7,041 nt of DNA from Acidobacteriota bacterium (GTDB lineage Bacteria > Acidobacteriota > Vicinamibacteria > Vicinamibacterales > UBA8438): contig DTWD01000269.1 in the NCBI GenBank assembly GCA_012963185.1, positions 1 through 7,041 of the forward strand, in the 5' to 3' direction. The notes under the pieces are model-generated. The model did not search any database, was not told the DNA's origin, and was given only the letters and a program-made list of their open reading frames with translations. The translations under genes and the position numbers were made by a program. Below are positions 2 through 5,799 of this stretch, piece after piece. Within the stretch, counting starts at the first letter, position 1, and each line of letters opens with the position of its first letter.

Positions 2-193
2 CCAGACGAATTGGATTTTGACGATCCCTTGGCCCAGCTCCATGGAATGTCCAATGCAGTCATACTTACGACAGACATCCTCGGCGACATTATGATTGGT
101 GAATTAACCTCTGGTTTGACCCAGACAGCCTACGCACTCTTAAGTGATTTGGTTACACTTCGCCGTCGCCTGACAACAACACCCGAAACTTAG
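2..193 (+). CDS. hom: Homoserine dehydrogenase, C-terminal end (partial at 5')
   Basis: The reading frame is open from base 2 to the TAG at 191-193; the gene starts outside the window. The visible 63 residues match the C-terminal catalytic-domain end of homoserine dehydrogenases: a DDPLA segment, then SNAV-(x)3-TD-x-LGD, then QTAYALLSDLV followed by an Arg-rich tail. In the family this part completes the substrate-binding domain of the enzyme that reduces aspartate semialdehyde to homoserine (threonine/methionine pathway, cytoplasmic). The usual glycine-rich 'GPGAG' stretch before the TAYA motif reads GELTSG here, a modest deviation. No ACT domain follows, so this is a form without a C-terminal regulatory ACT domain, or one whose regulation lies elsewhere. 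Its last 41 bases overlap the 3' end of the opposite-strand glutaredoxin gene. The assignment rests on a short fragment but the motif order is characteristic. Confidence 0.8.
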   Translation, partial: PDELDFDDPLAQLHGMSNAVILTTDILGDIMIGELTSGLTQTAYALLSDLVTLRRRLTTTPET

Positions 194-398
194 CTTCGTC
201 AAAGCCTTTAACTGCGACACCGTTTATGACGGTCACAGGCACAGCCCTCCAGCCAAGCGCAATTAGTTCAGCATACGCGTCTGGATCATCGTCCACATTA
301 CGGCTGACGAACGAGGGTCCTTCGTGTGAAAGAAACTCTTTCACCCAATCGCACGCCTCTCAATCAGAGCCCGAATACACGATAATGGAGGTAGACAT
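153..398 (-). CDS. Selenocysteine-containing glutaredoxin-like protein (in-frame UGA at 362-360)
   Basis: Seen: an ATG at 398-396 with a GGGAG ribosome binding site 6 nt upstream opens a frame of 81 codons ending in TAA (155-153), interrupted only by a TGA at codon 13. Before the TGA the frame encodes a beta-strand of glutaredoxin type (MSTSIIVYSGSD). Directly after it come Glu14-Ala15-Cys16, so the motif is UGA-x-x-Cys where glutaredoxins and NrdH proteins have CxxC. The rest matches the fold: helix DWVKEFL, then RAVPVTVING with the expected cis-Pro, then a GF-(D/E) turn and final helix. A hairpin of SECIS type starts 15 nt after the UGA. Known: bacterial UxxC thioredoxin-fold selenoproteins exist and Sec usually replaces the N-terminal redox Cys. 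Inferred: UGA is read as selenocysteine, giving a cytoplasmic thiol/disulfide reductant of 81 residues. A GTG at 344 would give only a 63-residue fragment lacking the active site. The alternative is a pseudogene with a nonsense mutation; the precise position and the hairpin argue against that. Confidence 0.82.
326..344 (-). promoter_or_regulatory. Putative bacterial SECIS hairpin of the selenoglutaredoxin mRNA
   Basis: On the minus strand, GTGAAAGA (344-337) and TCTTTCAC (333-326) form a perfect 8-bp stem closed by a GUU loop (336-334). The stem begins 15 nt and the loop 23 nt after the in-frame UGA. Bacterial SECIS elements lie within the coding sequence immediately downstream of the UGA and carry a G at the start of the apical loop, usually about 16-37 nt away; both hold here. 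SelB would bind this hairpin to deliver Sec-tRNA. The structure was folded by eye only. Confidence 0.65.
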
Positions 399-404
399 AA
401 TGAT

Positions 405-409
405 CTCCC
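405..409 (-). promoter_or_regulatory. Ribosome binding site deciding the selenoglutaredoxin start
   Basis: GGGAG on the minus strand lies 6 nt before the ATG at 398. It supports translation starting upstream of the UGA rather than at the GTG at 344, and so supports the 81-codon reading. Confidence 0.6.
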
Positions 410-488: not shown

Positions 489-1703
489 ATGACGGTAACA
501 ACAGGGGCAAAACTAAAGGGAGCGCTTGAGGGCGTAACCATCCTCGATTTAACCCGCGTTCTTTCTGGCCCCTATTGCACCATGCTCCTAGCTGACATGG
601 GCGCTCGCGTGATCAAAATTGAGCACCCTGAACATGGTGATGACACGCGCGGATGGGGACCACCGTTCTTAGGTGATGAGAGCGCATACTTCCTCAGTGT
701 CAACCGCAATAAGGAAAGTGTGACGCTCGATTTTAAACATCCAAAGGGCCGTGATGTGCTTAATCAATTAATCGAGCAGGTAGATGTCCTGGTTGAGAAT
801 TTTCGGCCGGGCACAATGAAACGCGCTGGATTTGGGTACAACGATTTGGCGGCTCGATTACCCAATCTAATATATGCCTCAGTTTCAGGTTTCGGACAGA
901 CCGGACCACGACACACTCAGCCTGGTTATGATGCCGTGCTACAAGCCGAGGGTGGCTTGATGAGTATCACCGGTGATGCTGATGGTCCCGCGTACCGACT
1001 CGGCGTAGCAATTTCCGATATCACGGCTGGCATGTTCGCGGCATATGGAGTGGTGTTGGCACTATTCGCACGGGATCGTACGGGACGTGGTCAGATGGTC
1101 GATGTAGGCATGCTCGATGCCGTCTCGGCACTACTGACATATCAGGCTGAAATCCACCTGACCACAGGCGTAGTACCGCCACGAATGGGAAATCGGCATC
1201 CGACCATTACGCCATACGAGACCTTCGATACTTCTGACGGTGAGTTTGTTGTCGCAGTCGGAAACGATGAACAGTGGAAGCGTTTATGCAAAGTAATCGA
1301 TCGGCCGGAACTAGGCAATGACCCGCATTTTAATACCAACCGTGCTCGGGTAGCAGCTCACGACCAATTACAACCCCTCCTCGCTCAGGTATTTAAAACT
1401 CGGACACGGAAAGTTTGGATCGAATGTTTGAATGAAGCAGGGATTCCGTGTGGAGCTGTTCGCAATATCGCTGAAGTCTTAGCCGACCCGCAACTCGCTG
1501 CTCGAGAAATGATCGCCTCACTAAACCATCCAACAGTCGGTCCACTAAAGATGCTTGGAGTGCCGACCAAACTCTCCGATACCCCCGGTTCGGTTCGAAC
1601 CCCACCGCCCACCCTCGGGCAACACACCGAGTACGTGCTGACGGAATTACTAGACTTAAGTGCAGATGAAATCGTGGCGTTGCAAAAGGCTGGAGCGATC
1701 TAA
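489..1703 (+). CDS. CaiB/BaiF family (family III) CoA-transferase
   Basis: A complete 404-residue protein of normal length for the family. It transfers CoA between acyl-CoA and a free carboxylic acid in the cytoplasm; the substrate pair cannot be read from the sequence. N-terminal markers are LEGVTILDLTRVLSGPYCTMLLADMGA and VIKIEHPEHGDDTRGW (about 13-56), the NRNKESVTLDFKHPKG segment (72-87) and VENFRPG (102-108). Asp177 in the GVAISDIT segment aligns with the catalytic Asp169 of Oxalobacter formyl-CoA transferase, which forms the covalent acyl/CoA intermediates. GRGQMVDVGMLDAV (199-212) and GIPCGAV (318-324) are further family hallmarks, and LGQHTEYVL (376-384) closes the C-terminal region. 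The ATG is preceded by GAGGTG (478-483) with a 5-nt spacer. It is divergent from the selenoglutaredoxin and ends 2 bp from the convergent unknown gene, so it appears monocistronic. No partner acyl-CoA ligase, dehydrogenase or hydratase is in the window to narrow the substrate. Confidence 0.93.
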   Translation: MTVTTGAKLKGALEGVTILDLTRVLSGPYCTMLLADMGARVIKIEHPEHGDDTRGWGPPFLGDESAYFLSVNRNKESVTLDFKHPKGRDVLNQLIEQVDVLVENFRPGTMKRAGFGYNDLAARLPNLIYASVSGFGQTGPRHTQPGYDAVLQAEGGLMSITGDADGPAYRLGVAISDITAGMFAAYGVVLALFARDRTGRGQMVDVGMLDAVSALLTYQAEIHLTTGVVPPRMGNRHPTITPYETFDTSDGEFVVAVGNDEQWKRLCKVIDRPELGNDPHFNTNRARVAAHDQLQPLLAQVFKTRTRKVWIECLNEAGIPCGAVRNIAEVLADPQLAAREMIASLNHPTVGPLKMLGVPTKLSDTPGSVRTPPPTLGQHTEYVLTELLDLSADEIVALQKAGAI

Positions 1704-1705
1704 AA

Positions 1706-2146
1706 CTATCTTGAACTTTTGTCTGACTTCGGCGCTTCCACCTCGTATATCCGAACTAATTCGACTAATTTGTAACCGCGAGTTTGATACGGCGGTACGA
1801 TACGTTCCGTACGAAGGTACTGCAACATTCCTTCGTCAGCGTAGTCGCAAGGTCCAATGGTCGACACATTCGCCAAATGCTGTTCGAGCGAATCCAAGGA
1901 CATCTCCTTTTCTAGAATCCTGCGCCTTCCAGGCCAGAAACCGAACCAGCGAATCGTCTCGACTCGCTCTGTACTAGCGAATGCAACAAATACCTCATTA
2001 CTAATAAACTGGTAACCCGTGTCAGCGTGCGTAGCTGGTGCATCTTCGACCCGTAGATACACCATACTACCGTGCTCCTTTAGCGACTCGATAAGCGCCT
2101 CAGTAAAGCTCCCATCCCCAGACCAGTTAGATGTTTCGATGTGCAT
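1706..2146 (-). CDS. Hypothetical protein, 146 residues, function unknown
   Basis: I do not recognise this protein. It is a soluble, mixed alpha/beta-looking sequence without signal peptide or membrane segment. Features are an aromatic FGFWPGRRR stretch (about 69-77), an acidic-helical region EKEMSLDSLEQHL (79-91), two Cys/Met-poor halves with a single Cys (about 99), and a C-terminal LVELVRIYEVE strand-like segment. Coding status is supported by an uninterrupted 146-codon frame, an ATG start and a tight convergent fit to the CoA-transferase, whose stop is 2 bp away. The ATG at 2146 has AAGGA only 1 nt upstream, an unusually close spacing; no other ATG is available upstream in frame before the TAG at 2209-2207, so the start is uncertain. 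The 155 bp separating it from the cupredoxin gene hold no convincing promoter or terminator. It could be a distal operon member or independently transcribed. Confidence 0.6.
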   Translation of the reverse strand: MHIETSNWSGDGSFTEALIESLKEHGSMVYLRVEDAPATHADTGYQFISNEVFVAFASTERVETIRWFGFWPGRRRILEKEMSLDSLEQHLANVSTIGPCDYADEGMLQYLRTERIVPPYQTRGYKLVELVRIYEVEAPKSDKSSR

Positions 2147-2301: not shown

Positions 2302-2709
2302 TCACTGCGTCTCAACAACTTCAATCACACCACGCATCATGGCACTATGCGGAGTACAGATGTATTCATGAATTCCCATATTTGACGGCACGCGAAATTG
2401 CACTGACCCTACCTGCCCCGCACCGAGCCCAGCAACCGAAACATCCAAGCTATCAATCCTAAACCCGTGCAGCATGCCGGATTCGACATTACGGAGAACG
2501 ATGCGCACATCTTCATTTGCCTTGAAACGCAATCTAGGATTCGGAATAGTCTGTCCTTCGATATAGAACGCCATGTTACGAACGACTAGAACAATTTCCC
2601 GCACGGACGATCCCGAATCTACCGCGCGTACCGACAGTCCAGCAATACCCACGCACGCAAGGCCAAACAAGACCAGTGTGACGGTTTGCCTTCGAATCCA
2701 TTGATGCAT
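2302..2709 (-). CDS. Membrane-anchored cupredoxin (blue copper) domain protein
   Basis: A 135-residue protein with an N-terminal hydrophobic segment (about 9-29) preceded by WIRR, either a signal peptide or a signal anchor, placing the domain outside the cytoplasmic membrane. The remainder is a single cupredoxin domain. Type 1 copper ligands visible are His81 (GMLHGF), Cys118 and His121 in CTPH, and Met125 (or Met124) before RG; CTPH-(x)n-MRG resembles amicyanin and plastocyanin. Such proteins shuttle electrons, so it may accept electrons from or donate them to the multicopper oxidase encoded two genes upstream; that partnership is inferred. It is the last gene of the oxidase-ZIP-cupredoxin operon. 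A TTG at 2721 overlapping the ZIP stop would add 4 residues (139 in all); the ATG at 2709 is chosen because an AGAAAG sequence lies just upstream and ATG is commoner, but the choice is uncertain. Confidence 0.85.
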   Translation of the reverse strand: MHQWIRRQTVTLVLFGLACVGIAGLSVRAVDSGSSVREIVLVVRNMAFYIEGQTIPNPRLRFKANEDVRIVLRNVESGMLHGFRIDSLDVSVAGLGAGQVGSVQFRVPSNMGIHEYICTPHSAMMRGVIEVVETQ

Positions 2710-2717
2710 GGTCTTTC

Positions 2718-3941
2718 TCAACCCACTAACATTCCGGTAACGTACATAATCACAAACCCCGCACAGAGACCACCCAACACTGGTGCCTTTGCAAGAAACT
2801 GTGCTACTGGCGCATCAGCCACCATCTGTCGTGTAATCTGGACAACCACCTGCGCTATCGCACCCGCACCGACTCCAAAAAACAACACAGACCACACGGG
2901 CGAGTACACGAACCCGCCGAGCCACGTTCCAAGAATCGTCGGAACACCACCAATGAGACCAAGTTTTAAGAGATCCACGATGCGGGTCCGCTCATTTGCG
3001 AGTGGCGCCACAATCGCCAGCCCTTCAGTGGTATTGTGCAGAGTAAAACCTACGATCAACAGGGTTCCTAGACCTGCCGCACCTTGCGCGAACGCCGTTC
3101 CGATCGCCAAGCCTTCACCAAAGTTGTGTAATCCGATTCCGATAGCCACAAGCAACGCGCTTACCCATCTGCCGGATACCATTCCTGGGTTCGCTCGCGA
3201 CTTACGAGTACTCAACCACGACCTCAGAGCCTCCAAACCAAGATACGCCGTCGCCACGCTAAAGAAAAAAAGCGCTACACCGTGGTACGACTCAGGCATT
3301 ACAGCTGCTATCTCGAGACCCTCGCGACCAGCATCAACAAGCAAAAACATTAGCAACCCAATCGTAAGAGATAACAGAAATGCCAAACCGGTCTTCCCAA
3401 GCCTCGACACCAGCGGAAACCACAACAAACCAAGCATCACAGGAATGACGCCTACGTAGAGGCCGATGATGGTAAAGGCAGCAAAGAATCGCCACTCTGG
3501 CATGGGTGTTTCTACAGCCACAGCGATTTCGTAGTCGAAGGTCACACCATTTGACGTCACAACCCTGACCACATGCGTATCGCCAGACACCCAAGGATAT
3601 GGAATCGTAAGTGTCGTACGATCTAGATGTTTCAAGACCGTTCCGCGATCCGATTCGAAAGCCCAAAAAGCGTCGTCGATTTGCACCTGCGCAATTGATA
3701 CTTGGTCAGGTCCATCATTCAGCACTGTTACGTTGATCACGCCAGGTTGTAGGCGTACGGCATTAAACGTCAGCTCTTCCACCAAAGGATGTGAATTATC
3801 ACGAACACTATCAGCAGGATCTGTCCATACGATGACCGTTACCAGCGCCAGTAAAAGTAGTACTGGTAAAAGCGCGATAACCCATACAGAGCCTAGTCTT
3901 GAGTCGAACCCAGACGCCCTTGACTGTAGATCAGGTCTCAC
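2718..3941 (-). CDS. ZIP family metal transporter with N-terminal extracytoplasmic domain
   Basis: A 407-residue inner-membrane protein. Residues about 19-39 form an N-terminal membrane helix, 40-147 a soluble beta-rich domain that is not part of ordinary ZIP proteins, and 150-406 about eight membrane segments of the ZIP fold. The ZIP metal site is clear: HNFGEG (His272, Asn273, Glu276) in the fourth core helix and HNTTEG (His302, Asn303, Glu306) in the fifth, matching the HNxxEG motifs of ZupT/ZIP proteins that import Zn, Fe, Mn or related divalent metals. The canonical Pro of HNxPEG is Gly in the first and Thr in the second. The loop between core helices 3 and 4 (RSWLSTRKSRANPG) is basic rather than His-rich. 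It overlaps the multicopper oxidase stop and is followed closely by the cupredoxin, so co-transcription is likely. A GTG at 3950 would add 3 residues; the GTG at 3941 is preferred because GGAGAG lies 8 nt upstream of it. Substrate metal is not determined. Confidence 0.88.
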   Translation of the reverse strand: MRPDLQSRASGFDSRLGSVWVIALLPVLLLLALVTVIVWTDPADSVRDNSHPLVEELTFNAVRLQPGVINVTVLNDGPDQVSIAQVQIDDAFWAFESDRGTVLKHLDRTTLTIPYPWVSGDTHVVRVVTSNGVTFDYEIAVAVETPMPEWRFFAAFTIIGLYVGVIPVMLGLLWFPLVSRLGKTGLAFLLSLTIGLLMFLLVDAGREGLEIAAVMPESYHGVALFFFSVATAYLGLEALRSWLSTRKSRANPGMVSGRWVSALLVAIGIGLHNFGEGLAIGTAFAQGAAGLGTLLIVGFTLHNTTEGLAIVAPLANERTRIVDLLKLGLIGGVPTILGTWLGGFVYSPVWSVLFFGVGAGAIAQVVVQITRQMVADAPVAQFLAKAPVLGGLCAGFVIMYVTGMLVG

Positions 3942-4989
3942 GTCGATCACTCTCCGCTCGGAACAGCCCCATCCAGCCTAGTTCTGCAAACTCACTCTGA
4001 TGAGCATGGAACATGAAATCACCTGGATATCGAAACGTAGTTTCAAGGATCATACGCTCGCCTTGACAAAACATCACCGTGTCAGTGGTTTCAGTTGGAA
4101 TGAGTTTTGTACCTGTGCGATAGACATCGAAGAACATGCCGTGCAAATGCAAGCTGTTTAATAAATCGAACTCGGTAATGTTGATGACGTACATACGAAC
4201 CAATTGCCCAACTTGAACACGAATTGGTTCGTGCATATGAAAGTGCGCGACCGTATTGACTGCGTAAACTTCGTTCTCGGCGTCGAAGTTGGTGTCAAAT
4301 GAGTTAAGTATCATAATTAGCTCATCGGCCGGAGCCCTAGTTACAGCTGCGCCAGTTGGCGGATCAATAATAAACGCACCGTAGAGACCTTTATGGATAT
4401 GCCGCTTAAGTGGCACACTGTGGCAGTGATAGAGATGCACACCGAAGGGTGCCGCATCAAATTCATAGACAAATCGCTCGCCTGGTGCTACCTCGTGGTC
4501 AGGCATCGAACCATCCATCTCTGGCGGATGCCATCCGTGAAAATGAATAGTGTGGGGGTGGGTTCCTTGGTTGACGAAATTTACACGAATGCGGTCACCT
4601 TCGTTAGCCCGTAATGTTGGTCCCGGCACCTGACCGTTGTAAGTCCATGCAGGAAAAAACACACCCGGTGCTATTTCTACATCCCGATCAACGGCAAACA
4701 TTTCGTACTCCCGTAGCAATGTGCCATTTGAACGGGGAGTTTCACGGTAAAATTGAGCACGCTCCGTGTCTGTCAAGTTTGAGAAGTTCCAAGTTCGAAG
4801 AAACGCAGACGGATCAAAAGCCTCCTTTGAAACACGCCCTACCGCACCCATGAGATGCGGATTTTTATGCTGAACTTCGGATAAAGATTGGCTAGCGGAC
4901 AGGGCGCCAGGCCTCCAGTGCAGAGCGCCACTTACGAGCGAACCTAGTCCTGCCAGTTGTAACCAGGAGCGCCGAGTAAAATGCTTCAT
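3931..4989 (-). CDS. Tat-exported two-domain multicopper oxidase (laccase / nitrite reductase-like)
   Basis: A 352-residue protein starting with a twin-arginine signal (TRRSWLQLAG, Arg6-Arg7, then a hydrophobic stretch to about 23), so it is exported folded with its copper. Two cupredoxin domains follow (about 95-210 and 220-345). All four HxH motifs of a type 2/3 trinuclear copper centre are present: HFH (149-151), HCH (188-190), HLH (281-283) and HAH (328-330). A type 1 copper site lies in domain 1, with likely ligands His146, Cys189 and His197; the axial position, Met in NirK, appears to be Leu202 (GLYG), as in high-potential laccases. Domain 2 has no HCH-type Cys. Known members oxidise phenols or metal ions (Fe, Mn, Cu) with O2; NirK reduces nitrite but lacks the full set of HxH pairs, so an O2-reducing oxidase is more likely. 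It is the first gene of the operon with ZIP and cupredoxin and is divergent from a DtxR-type regulator. The ribosome binding site is weak (AGAG at a 10-nt spacing). Confidence 0.92.
   Translation of the reverse strand: MKHFTRRSWLQLAGLGSLVSGALHWRPGALSASQSLSEVQHKNPHLMGAVGRVSKEAFDPSAFLRTWNFSNLTDTERAQFYRETPRSNGTLLREYEMFAVDRDVEIAPGVFFPAWTYNGQVPGPTLRANEGDRIRVNFVNQGTHPHTIHFHGWHPPEMDGSMPDHEVAPGERFVYEFDAAPFGVHLYHCHSVPLKRHIHKGLYGAFIIDPPTGAAVTRAPADELIMILNSFDTNFDAENEVYAVNTVAHFHMHEPIRVQVGQLVRMYVINITEFDLLNSLHLHGMFFDVYRTGTKLIPTETTDTVMFCQGERMILETTFRYPGDFMFHAHQSEFAELGWMGLFRAESDRRET
3950..3955 (-). promoter_or_regulatory. Ribosome binding site deciding the ZIP transporter start
   Basis: GGAGAG on the minus strand sits 8 nt before the GTG at 3941 but directly abuts the GTG at 3950. 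It therefore favours the downstream GTG. The site lies inside the end of the oxidase gene, consistent with translational coupling. Confidence 0.5.
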
Positions 4990-5121: not shown

Positions 5122-5799
5122 ATGCTGCCATCAAGCACGGTAGAAAATTATTTGAAGTCGATCTACATCGCACAGTTGAGACTCGACGATGATCAAGAGT
5201 TGGTCCCCATGGGTCAGCTTGCATCGTCACTCGATGTCGCGCCGGGAACCGCTACAACGATGGTTAAAGCGCTGTCAGATTCCGGACTGGTCGACTACGA
5301 ACCGTACGCGGGTGTACGTCTTACTGACGCTGGTGCCAAACTCGCCGCTTCGGTGCTGAGACGCCATCGTCTTGTTGAACTCTTCCTCGTACAGATGATG
5401 GGTATGAGTTGGACAGAAGTACATGACGAAGCGGAAAACCTTGAACACGCCGTCTCGGATCGACTAATCGATCGGATCGACGAACTGCTCGGTCGCCCAT
5501 CCGTAGATCCACACGGCGATCCCATCCCAGATTCGATGGGTACCATGTCACGTTACCATTATCACAATCTTCTAACTTGTCCTTTACAAAAACCGATGAA
5601 CGTAACACGAGTTATTGATCAAGATGTAAAATTTTTACAATTTCTAGAAGCCCAGAACCTCAAGCCTGGCCAGTCGATTCGGGTCGAAACGCGAGACGCC
5701 ATAGCCGATAGCGTAACCGTGATCAATGCAGAAGATCGCCAGATCACGCTGGGAACCGCTGCTGCCTCTAAATTATTAGTGGAGCCGAAACGACCATGA
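5122..5799 (+). CDS. DtxR/MntR-family metal-dependent transcriptional repressor with C-terminal FeoA/SH3-like domain
   Basis: A 225-residue cytoplasmic DNA-binding protein of typical DtxR-family length. Order: winged helix (about 4-68; TVENYLKSIY, recognition region APGTATTMVKAL, wing YEPYAGVRLTDAG), metal-binding/dimerisation domain (70-140; RRHRLVELFL and VHDEAENLEHAVSDRL), a YHYHN linker (145-149), and an SH3/FeoA-like domain (about 155-222; LKPGQSIRV...ITLGTAAASKLLVE). Aligning with DtxR/MntR, His82, Glu86, His101, Glu105, Glu108 and His109 fall on metal-ligand positions. Glu105 is at the place of DtxR Cys102 and matches MntR Glu99, pointing toward an MntR-like Mn/Fe sensor; the N-terminal ligand (Met10 in DtxR, Asp8 in MntR) is Asn9 here. 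It lies divergent to the multicopper oxidase-ZIP-cupredoxin operon with two palindromes between them, so it probably represses itself and that operon when metal is replete. The ATG has a modest GTGAG site upstream. Confidence 0.92.
   Translation: MLPSSTVENYLKSIYIAQLRLDDDQELVPMGQLASSLDVAPGTATTMVKALSDSGLVDYEPYAGVRLTDAGAKLAASVLRRHRLVELFLVQMMGMSWTEVHDEAENLEHAVSDRLIDRIDELLGRPSVDPHGDPIPDSMGTMSRYHYHNLLTCPLQKPMNVTRVIDQDVKFLQFLEAQNLKPGQSIRVETRDAIADSVTVINAEDRQITLGTAAASKLLVEPKRP

What the first reader, a model, noticed from the sequence alone, without database searches (positions are those of the whole stretch)
153..398. Selenocysteine glutaredoxin hidden behind an in-frame UGA
The 63-residue glutaredoxin-like fragment at 153-344 extends upstream, through a single TGA at 362-360, to an ATG with a good ribosome binding site. 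The TGA falls exactly on the first Cys of the glutaredoxin redox motif, giving UxxC (U-E-A-C), and glutaredoxin similarity is continuous on both sides. Sec replacing the N-terminal redox Cys is the established pattern in thioredoxin-fold selenoproteins. Standard annotation would truncate the protein and lose its active site.
Basis: partly seen in the sequence, partly recalled or inferred. Interest (0 to 1): 0.9.

Follow-up and report, generated by a model that had tools for sequence, protein, structure and literature searches.

The report
Selenocysteine glutaredoxin gene, truncated by annotation
A small redox protein in an ocean bacterium appears to carry selenium at its active site, encoded by what looks like a stop codon, so ordinary gene annotation cuts off its working end; it is a new and widely overlooked branch of an already known family.

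Summary
Confirmed and supported. On the minus strand, 398..153 reads as 81 residues with one in-frame TGA (362-360) at the first position of the glutaredoxin motif, U-E-A-C. The TGA is conserved: a separately assembled sister contig (94.6% identical over the window) keeps it, and of 48 matches in 162 genomes of the same order 41 carry one TGA, all 41 at this column. The 13 more distant loci read with Cys have it there. A bacterial SECIS-like hairpin follows the UGA in 48 of 49 TGA loci against 2 of 13 Cys loci, with compensatory changes and unusual codons that fit selection on the RNA. The sister draft has selA and selD over cut-off and a selB split by a frame break; no tRNA-Sec was found in it, but 32 of the 38 TGA-bearing genomes of the order have one. 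Nearest solved structure: the selenoprotein glutaredoxin of Clostridium oremlandii. Sec-glutaredoxin is an established family, so this is a new member. The unexpected parts are an all-Sec clade and the scale of mis-annotation: 118 of the 120 listed database proteins start downstream of the Sec codon.

The parts
153..398 (-). Sec-glutaredoxin gene, 81 residues plus TAA stop, ATG start, U at 13
   Evidence: Translation with TGA=U; PF00462 52.3 bits; frame and TGA conserved in L001 and in 41 of 48 matches of the order
360..362 (-). In-frame TGA, read as selenocysteine 13 of the U-E-A-C motif
   Evidence: same column is TGA in 49 of 64 loci read, Cys codon in 13
351..353 (-). Resolving Cys16 codon (TGC)
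   Evidence: C16 invariant in the 38-sequence alignment A2
313..359 (-). Bacterial SECIS-like hairpin directly after the UGA
   Evidence: -19.7 kcal/mol over 53 nt, z -2.87; a hairpin meeting the same criterion in 48 of 49 TGA loci
326..344 (-). Apical stem of the hairpin (8 bp) with GUU loop at 334-336, 23 nt after the UGA
   Evidence: loop at 22-23 nt in 45 of 49 TGA loci; covariation and codon bias
405..409 (-). Shine-Dalgarno-like GGGAG, 6 bases before the ATG
   Evidence: read directly; same in L001
2..193 (+). C-terminal end of homoserine dehydrogenase, convergent, overlapping the glutaredoxin 3' end by 41 bases
   Evidence: PF00742 33.1 bits; neighbour found in 26 of 38 main-clade loci
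489..1703 (+). Class III CoA-transferase, divergent neighbour
   Evidence: PF02515 474 bits; neighbour found in 28 of 38 main-clade loci

Best explanation
The gene encodes a selenocysteine-containing dithiol-type glutaredoxin. Mechanism of expression: the ribosome meets UGA 362-360, SelB-GTP with Sec-tRNA(Sec) binds the hairpin that follows (loop 23 nt downstream), and Sec is inserted at residue 13. Mechanism of action: the Sec13 selenolate, at the N-terminus of the first helix, attacks an oxidised substrate, Cys16 resolves the intermediate as a selenenylsulfide, and a reductase or low-molecular-weight thiol restores it. Shown here by computation: the frame, the conserved TGA, the hairpin with RNA-level constraint, the Sec machinery in relatives, the predicted fold. 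Inferred: actual Sec insertion, redox activity, the reductant and the substrate. My guess for the reductant is a thioredoxin-reductase-type flavoenzyme rather than glutathione (about 60:40).
For: TGA column: 41 of 48 order matches carry one TGA, all 41 aligned at residue 13. Cys in 13 more distant loci and in P0108. U/C13, C16, P54 and G65 invariant in 38 sequences. Hairpin in 48 of 49 TGA loci vs 2 of 13 Cys loci; apical stem 90.4% paired vs at most 88.0% in 1000 column shuffles, 34-66% when slid, 37.5% in the Cys loci; three pairs with two-sided changes. Hairpin codons: Leu is CTT in 44 of 48 distinct sequences vs 20 of 215 Leu codons further downstream in the same genes, Ser TCA in 39 of 44 vs 10 of 93. 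Among the 38 TGA genomes of the order: selA over cut-off in 34, selB in 30, tRNA-Sec in 32. Model pLDDT 81.6; best solved match 7c10, C. oremlandii Grx1, TM 0.86/0.93, 0.9 A, 41% identity. cGrx1 is a native selenoprotein (PMC7642778, passages). TGA is an ordinary stop in 4 of 9 other window genes.
Against: No genome is held for the window itself. The sister draft has no tRNA-Sec over 47 bits (best 41.1, a tRNA-Arg) and its selB is split in two frames. Against synonymous permutation the hairpin energy is only mildly low: z -2.09 for the window, mean -1.03 over 49 TGA loci (Cys loci +0.16). The selA association is weak because selA is common in the whole order (34 of 38 vs 87 of 124, Fisher p 0.018, relatedness not corrected). 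Two relatives have Arg at the Sec position (L090, P0003). The TGA loci are related, so the counts are not independent events. No experiment.
Confidence: 0.94

Rival explanations
1. The TGA is a true stop; the product is a 63-aa protein from the GTG at 344, or the gene is a pseudogene.
For: Table 11 gives that ORF, and 118 of the 120 listed database proteins are annotated in that way.
Against: The fragment lacks strand 1 and the catalytic residue; the first 27 codons are unchanged between window and sister; every stop found at this column is TGA (49 of 49); the SECIS-like hairpin is found in 48 of 49 TGA loci and 2 of 13 Cys loci, and its stem pairing is 90.4% against 37.5%.
Confidence: 0.03
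2. Sequencing or assembly error: the real codon is TGC or TGT.
For: One base separates TGA from Cys codons; the window alone could not exclude it.
Against: Same TGA in the separately assembled L001 contig and in 38 genomes of the order; database protein P0002, a cluster listed with 23 member sequences and 94% identical, starts after the same site (its DNA was not read).
Confidence: 0.01
3. TGA is reassigned genome-wide (for example to Trp or Gly) rather than locally to Sec.
For: None found.
Against: TGA ends 4 of 9 other window genes and is inside none of them; the residue aligns with Cys, not Trp or Gly.
Confidence: 0.005
4. Functional rival: it is a classical glutathione-dependent glutaredoxin rather than a thioredoxin-reductase-dependent, NrdH-like redoxin.
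For: Belongs to PF00462; the cited account of cGrx1 has the oxidised protein reduced by GSH (PMC7642778 passage); GCS2-family genes occur in 18 of 38 TGA genomes.
Against: Glutathione synthetase ATP domain in only 7 of 38, at 21-58 bits, and neither domain in G001, G300 or G397, whose copies are the three nearest to the window's, though G001 and G300 are small drafts; best-scoring NCBIfam models are YruB and NrdH, both below cut-off; Cys-glutaredoxins fused to a pyridine-nucleotide disulphide oxidoreductase exist in the phylum sample (L040, L047).
Confidence: 0.4

Closest known systems
Selenoprotein glutaredoxin Grx1 of Clostridium (Alkaliphilus) oremlandii (PDB 7c10, 7c12)
   Same: Sec at the first motif position in nature (Cys in the crystals), resolving Cys16, same fold (TM 0.86/0.93), best sequence match in the PDB (46.4 bits single, 85.6 bits with profile)
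   Different: About 41% identity; motif there U(C)-P-x-C, here U-E-A-C (R most common after U in the clade); clostridium versus an ocean lineage that appears to be Acidobacteriota; Sec-MsrA partner there, no partner identified here
Sec-glutaredoxins of Geobacter sulfurreducens, Alkaliphilus metalliredigens and Moorella thermoacetica (PMC1794560, table passages) and Grx/Grx-like families of the Global Ocean Sampling survey (PMC2398784, passages)
   Same: PF00462, UxxC
   Different: Those sequences were not fetched; relation to this clade not tested
NrdH redoxin and YruB-family glutaredoxin (TIGR02194, TIGR02196)
   Same: Best-scoring NCBIfam models; all 38 members of A2 match both at E <= 0.001
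   Different: P0001 is below both curated cut-offs (49.1 vs 85.75; 53 vs 88.55 bits); NrdH has Cys (recalled)
UXX-star selenoprotein families (NF041212, NF041211, NF047338, NF041114)
   Same: Glutaredoxin-like; U at the first motif position (by name, recalled)
   Different: P0001 is below the cut-offs (34.4 vs 66, 26.8 vs 100, 28 vs 97) and has no listed match to NF041114; it keeps the second Cys (UxxC)

Membership tests
Selenoprotein glutaredoxin (Grx, PF00462, UxxC) | Glutaredoxin domain over the curated cut-off | tested here: met
   52.3 bits vs 22.9
Selenoprotein glutaredoxin (Grx, PF00462, UxxC) | In-frame TGA aligned with the catalytic Cys, second Cys at +3 | tested here: met
Selenoprotein glutaredoxin (Grx, PF00462, UxxC) | Bacterial SECIS downstream of UGA: loop 16-37 nt away with G in its first two bases (criterion recalled, from no call) | tested here: met
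   Loop GUU at 23 nt; 48 of 49 TGA loci pass
Selenoprotein glutaredoxin (Grx, PF00462, UxxC) | Sec machinery selA, selB, selC, selD in the organism | tested here: inconclusive
   Own genome not held. Sister draft: selA, selD over cut-off, selB split, selC not found. G397: selA, selB, tRNA-Sec over cut-off; selD not searched there
Selenoprotein glutaredoxin (Grx, PF00462, UxxC) | Sec physically incorporated | not testable with these tools
   needs 75Se labelling or mass spectrometry
Glutathione-dependent glutaredoxin (function) | Glutathione available and used as reductant | tested here: inconclusive
   GSH synthetase domain in 7 of 38, GCS2 family in 18 of 38 genomes
NrdH redoxin (TIGR02194) | Score over the curated cut-off | tested here: not met
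   49.1 vs 85.75 bits
YruB-family glutaredoxin (TIGR02196) | Score over the curated cut-off | tested here: not met
   53 vs 88.55 bits
UXX-star selenoprotein families | Score over the curated cut-off | tested here: not met
   34.4 vs 66, 26.8 vs 100, 28 vs 97 bits; no listed match to NF041114

The most novel reading that the evidence does not exclude
An order-wide clade of glutaredoxins that has become dependent on selenocysteine (no Cys orthologue seen in the clade), in cells that mostly lack a recognisable glutathione synthetase, and is therefore a thioredoxin-reductase-driven selenol redoxin rather than a glutathione-linked one. It has stayed out of sight because nearly every listed copy is annotated without its active site.
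Probability: 0.35. Interest if true: 0.55.

Novelty: new member of a known kind. Interest (0 to 1): 0.4.

Why it matters
The gene is one visible copy of a family whose database entries mostly lack the catalytic residue (118 of the 120 listed matches), so analyses built on annotated proteins misread these cells' redox chemistry and selenium need. An all-Sec clade (43 Sec rows, no Cys row, support 99/96) also gives a natural setting to test when Sec in a redoxin cannot be exchanged for Cys. The A2 alignment and the hairpin could be turned directly into a curated selenoprotein model.

Tried and rejected
Own-genome search was impossible, so the sister record found was used. P0001 alone gave only one database protein and nothing in viral contigs. 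Rfam has no family at gathering threshold in the window. Aragorn found no tRNA-Sec on the ten sister loci scanned; the eight candidates are tRNA-Arg, -Leu, -Ser and -Val there. Glutathione synthesis searches were equivocal: PF04107 also rings in E. coli and four other controls, PF02955 in 9 of 14 controls. Neighbour clustering was dominated by antisense frames; only the tblastn comparison with window proteins is used. The first structure model, from 4 sequences, was poor (pLDDT 61.5) and was not used. Sequencing error, true stop and genome-wide reassignment were considered and rejected as described under rivals.

Rows left out: of 51 matches, the 20 with loci plus two asked for (G032:C60, G266) were read; the other 29, all listed without stops, were not. 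In one search, 46 of 48 rows were read; G332 and G303 were not. The script column for L103 was one codon off the motif, so L103 is not in the 49 of the hairpin and codon counts. The tree has 61 rows: L090, L103 and the short L033 were dropped. A2 has 38 sequences: TGA rows L033, L036, L041, L042, L046, L070, L095, L097, L099, L102, L104 were left out. Only 120 of 1127 proteins were listed, and their DNA was not read. The tRNA-Sec search scored 86 of the candidates per genome at most, so its five misses may be false.

Full report
What is there. The minus strand from 398 to 153 holds an 82-codon frame, ATG to TAA, interrupted once by TGA at 362-360. Read through, it gives an 81-residue glutaredoxin with U-E-A-C at 13-16. 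A GGGAG lies six bases before the ATG. Pfam Glutaredoxin scores 52.3 bits for the whole and 35.6 bits for the 63-aa ORF that table 11 leaves. The gene sits between the end of homoserine dehydrogenase, which it overlaps by 41 bases tail to tail, and a divergent class III CoA-transferase.

It is real and conserved. A scan of one genome per species found one close relative: L001, contig NZSH01000023.1, a metagenome-assembled genome titled Woeseiaceae. It matches all 7041 bases of the window at 94.6% and keeps the TGA. Between the two copies only 4 of 82 codons differ, two of them silent, and the first is codon 28. In 162 genomes of the same order 43 have a match, in 48 rows. 41 rows, in 38 genomes, list one TGA, and reading each locus puts it at residue 13 in 41 of 41. 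Of the other seven rows, four have Cys, one has CGA (L090), two were not read. In 297 genomes across the phylum 45 have a match; 11 of 51 rows carry a TGA; 10 of those align at residue 13 and the eleventh, L103, has it one codon on in the same motif position, U-G-S-C. Altogether 64 loci were read, window included: 49 TGA at the column, L103, 13 Cys and one CGA.

The RNA. After the UGA the strand folds into a long hairpin whose apical 8-bp stem carries a GUU loop 23 nt downstream (53 nt, z -2.87, 2 of 200 shuffles as good). Of 49 TGA loci 48 have a hairpin that meets the bacterial SECIS criterion as I recall it; of 13 Cys loci 2 do. In 45 of 49 the loop starts 22-23 nt after the UGA; L032 has it at 19, L041 and L104 pass through a differently placed hairpin and L074 fails. 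Energies against synonymous permutations are only mildly low (window z -2.09; means -1.03 and +0.16 for TGA and Cys loci). Stronger evidence is in the letters: pairing is 90.4% in the apical stem, above all of 1000 column shuffles (maximum 88.0%), and 37.5% in the Cys loci; three pairs show two-sided changes; and in loci averaging 66% GC, Leu at the stem is CTT in 44 of 48 distinct sequences (20 of 215 Leu codons further downstream in these genes) and Ser is TCA in 39 of 44 (10 of 93 further downstream).

The machinery. For the sister genome G001 (1.7 Mb): selA 428 bits and selD 302 bits, both over cut-off, selD itself with one TGA; selB as two pieces of 151 and 112 bits in different frames on a contig rich in N; no tRNA-Sec. 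I take the last two as draft defects, but that is inference. Among the 38 TGA-bearing genomes of the order: selA over cut-off in 34, selB in 30, tRNA-Sec in 32 (30 of 35, G192 and G230, not G001). The machinery is common in the order anyway (selA over cut-off in 121 of 162), so the association with the gene is weak (p 0.018).

Fold and function. The 38-sequence clade alignment has U/C13, C16, L23, S24, P54 and G65 invariant. A model from 74 sequences (pLDDT 81.6) puts residue 13 just before helix 1; Foldseek's best match is 7c10, C. oremlandii Grx1 (TM 0.86/0.93, 0.9 A), which is also the best profile match in the PDB (85.6 bits). That protein is a native selenoprotein proposed to reduce a Sec-MsrA (PMC7642778, passages). 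For the reductant the evidence is split: glutathione synthetase domain in 7 of 38 genomes at 21-58 bits, and GCS2 in 18 of 38, with neither in G001, G300 or G397; two Cys-glutaredoxin loci in the phylum sample are fused to a disulphide oxidoreductase (L040, L047). I lean to a thioredoxin-reductase-type partner, inferred only.

Evolution and annotation. In a tree of 61 rows, 43 Sec rows form a group without any Cys row (support 99/96); other Sec rows lie among Cys rows, and the label needs three changes (few columns). In the main clade 35 of 38 loci show homoserine dehydrogenase (26) and/or the CoA-transferase (28) next door. A profile search of 5.8 billion proteins gave 1127 hits; of the 120 listed, 118 start at or up to five residues before the KEFLS-type stretch, downstream of the Sec codon, many named glutaredoxin; that a TGA lies before each is inferred, as their DNA was not read. 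The other two are P0003 with Arg at 13 and P0108 with Cys. Three listed source names visible read Acidobacteria or Vicinamibacterales bacterium, which disagrees with the Woeseiaceae title of L001.

Known or new. [quoted passage not shown] It was counted three times in a 2006 survey, when Acidobacteria had four selenoproteins (PMC1794560, passages), and as Grx in two and Grx-like in 42 sequences of the ocean survey (PMC2398784, passages). Text searches for selenoprotein, selenocysteine and Acidobacteri, for selenoprotein with Vicinamibacter (none) and for glutaredoxin, selenocysteine and Acidobacteri listed no paper that from title and start of abstract describes it in this lineage; only listings and passages were seen, and the library lacks most subscription journals. 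So: a new member of a known kind, with a broader mis-annotation worth reporting.

Noticed in passing
L090 (G305) and P0003: Two clade members have Arg at the Sec position; in L090 the codon is CGA, the SECIS-like hairpin is intact and the protein reading breaks down further on. Recent Sec loss or consensus error.
   Followed up: partly
L001 / NZSH01000023.1: Record is titled Woeseiaceae, but source names of three close database proteins read Acidobacteria or Vicinamibacterales; the record may be mislabelled.
   Followed up: partly
L020 (G001:C21:9236-10159): selD of the sister genome carries its own in-frame TGA, so SelD is probably a selenoprotein too.
   Followed up: no
L008 6270-8268: selB of the sister genome lies in two overlapping frames on a contig rich in N, probably a draft defect.
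   Followed up: partly
L033 (G006): Glutaredoxin relative with TGA at residue 13 and a further in-frame TAG after the FLS stretch.
   Followed up: no
L070 and L102 (G340): Clade member on two contigs with an ERGERGERGER repeat in its C-terminal half.
   Followed up: no
L040, L047: Cys-glutaredoxin fused to a pyridine-nucleotide disulphide oxidoreductase in one frame; one search lists four further matches inside open frames of 421-452 codons.
   Followed up: partly
window 2302-4989 (-): Cupredoxin-like protein, ZIP-like membrane protein and two-domain multicopper oxidase (best NCBIfam match Cu nitrite reductase, below cut-off) run in one direction with short overlaps, divergent from a DtxR/MntR-type regulator at 5122-5799.
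   Followed up: no
window 1706-2146 (-): 146-aa protein with no Pfam or NCBIfam match, 90% conserved in the sister and found near two other Sec-glutaredoxin loci (L050, L072).
   Followed up: no
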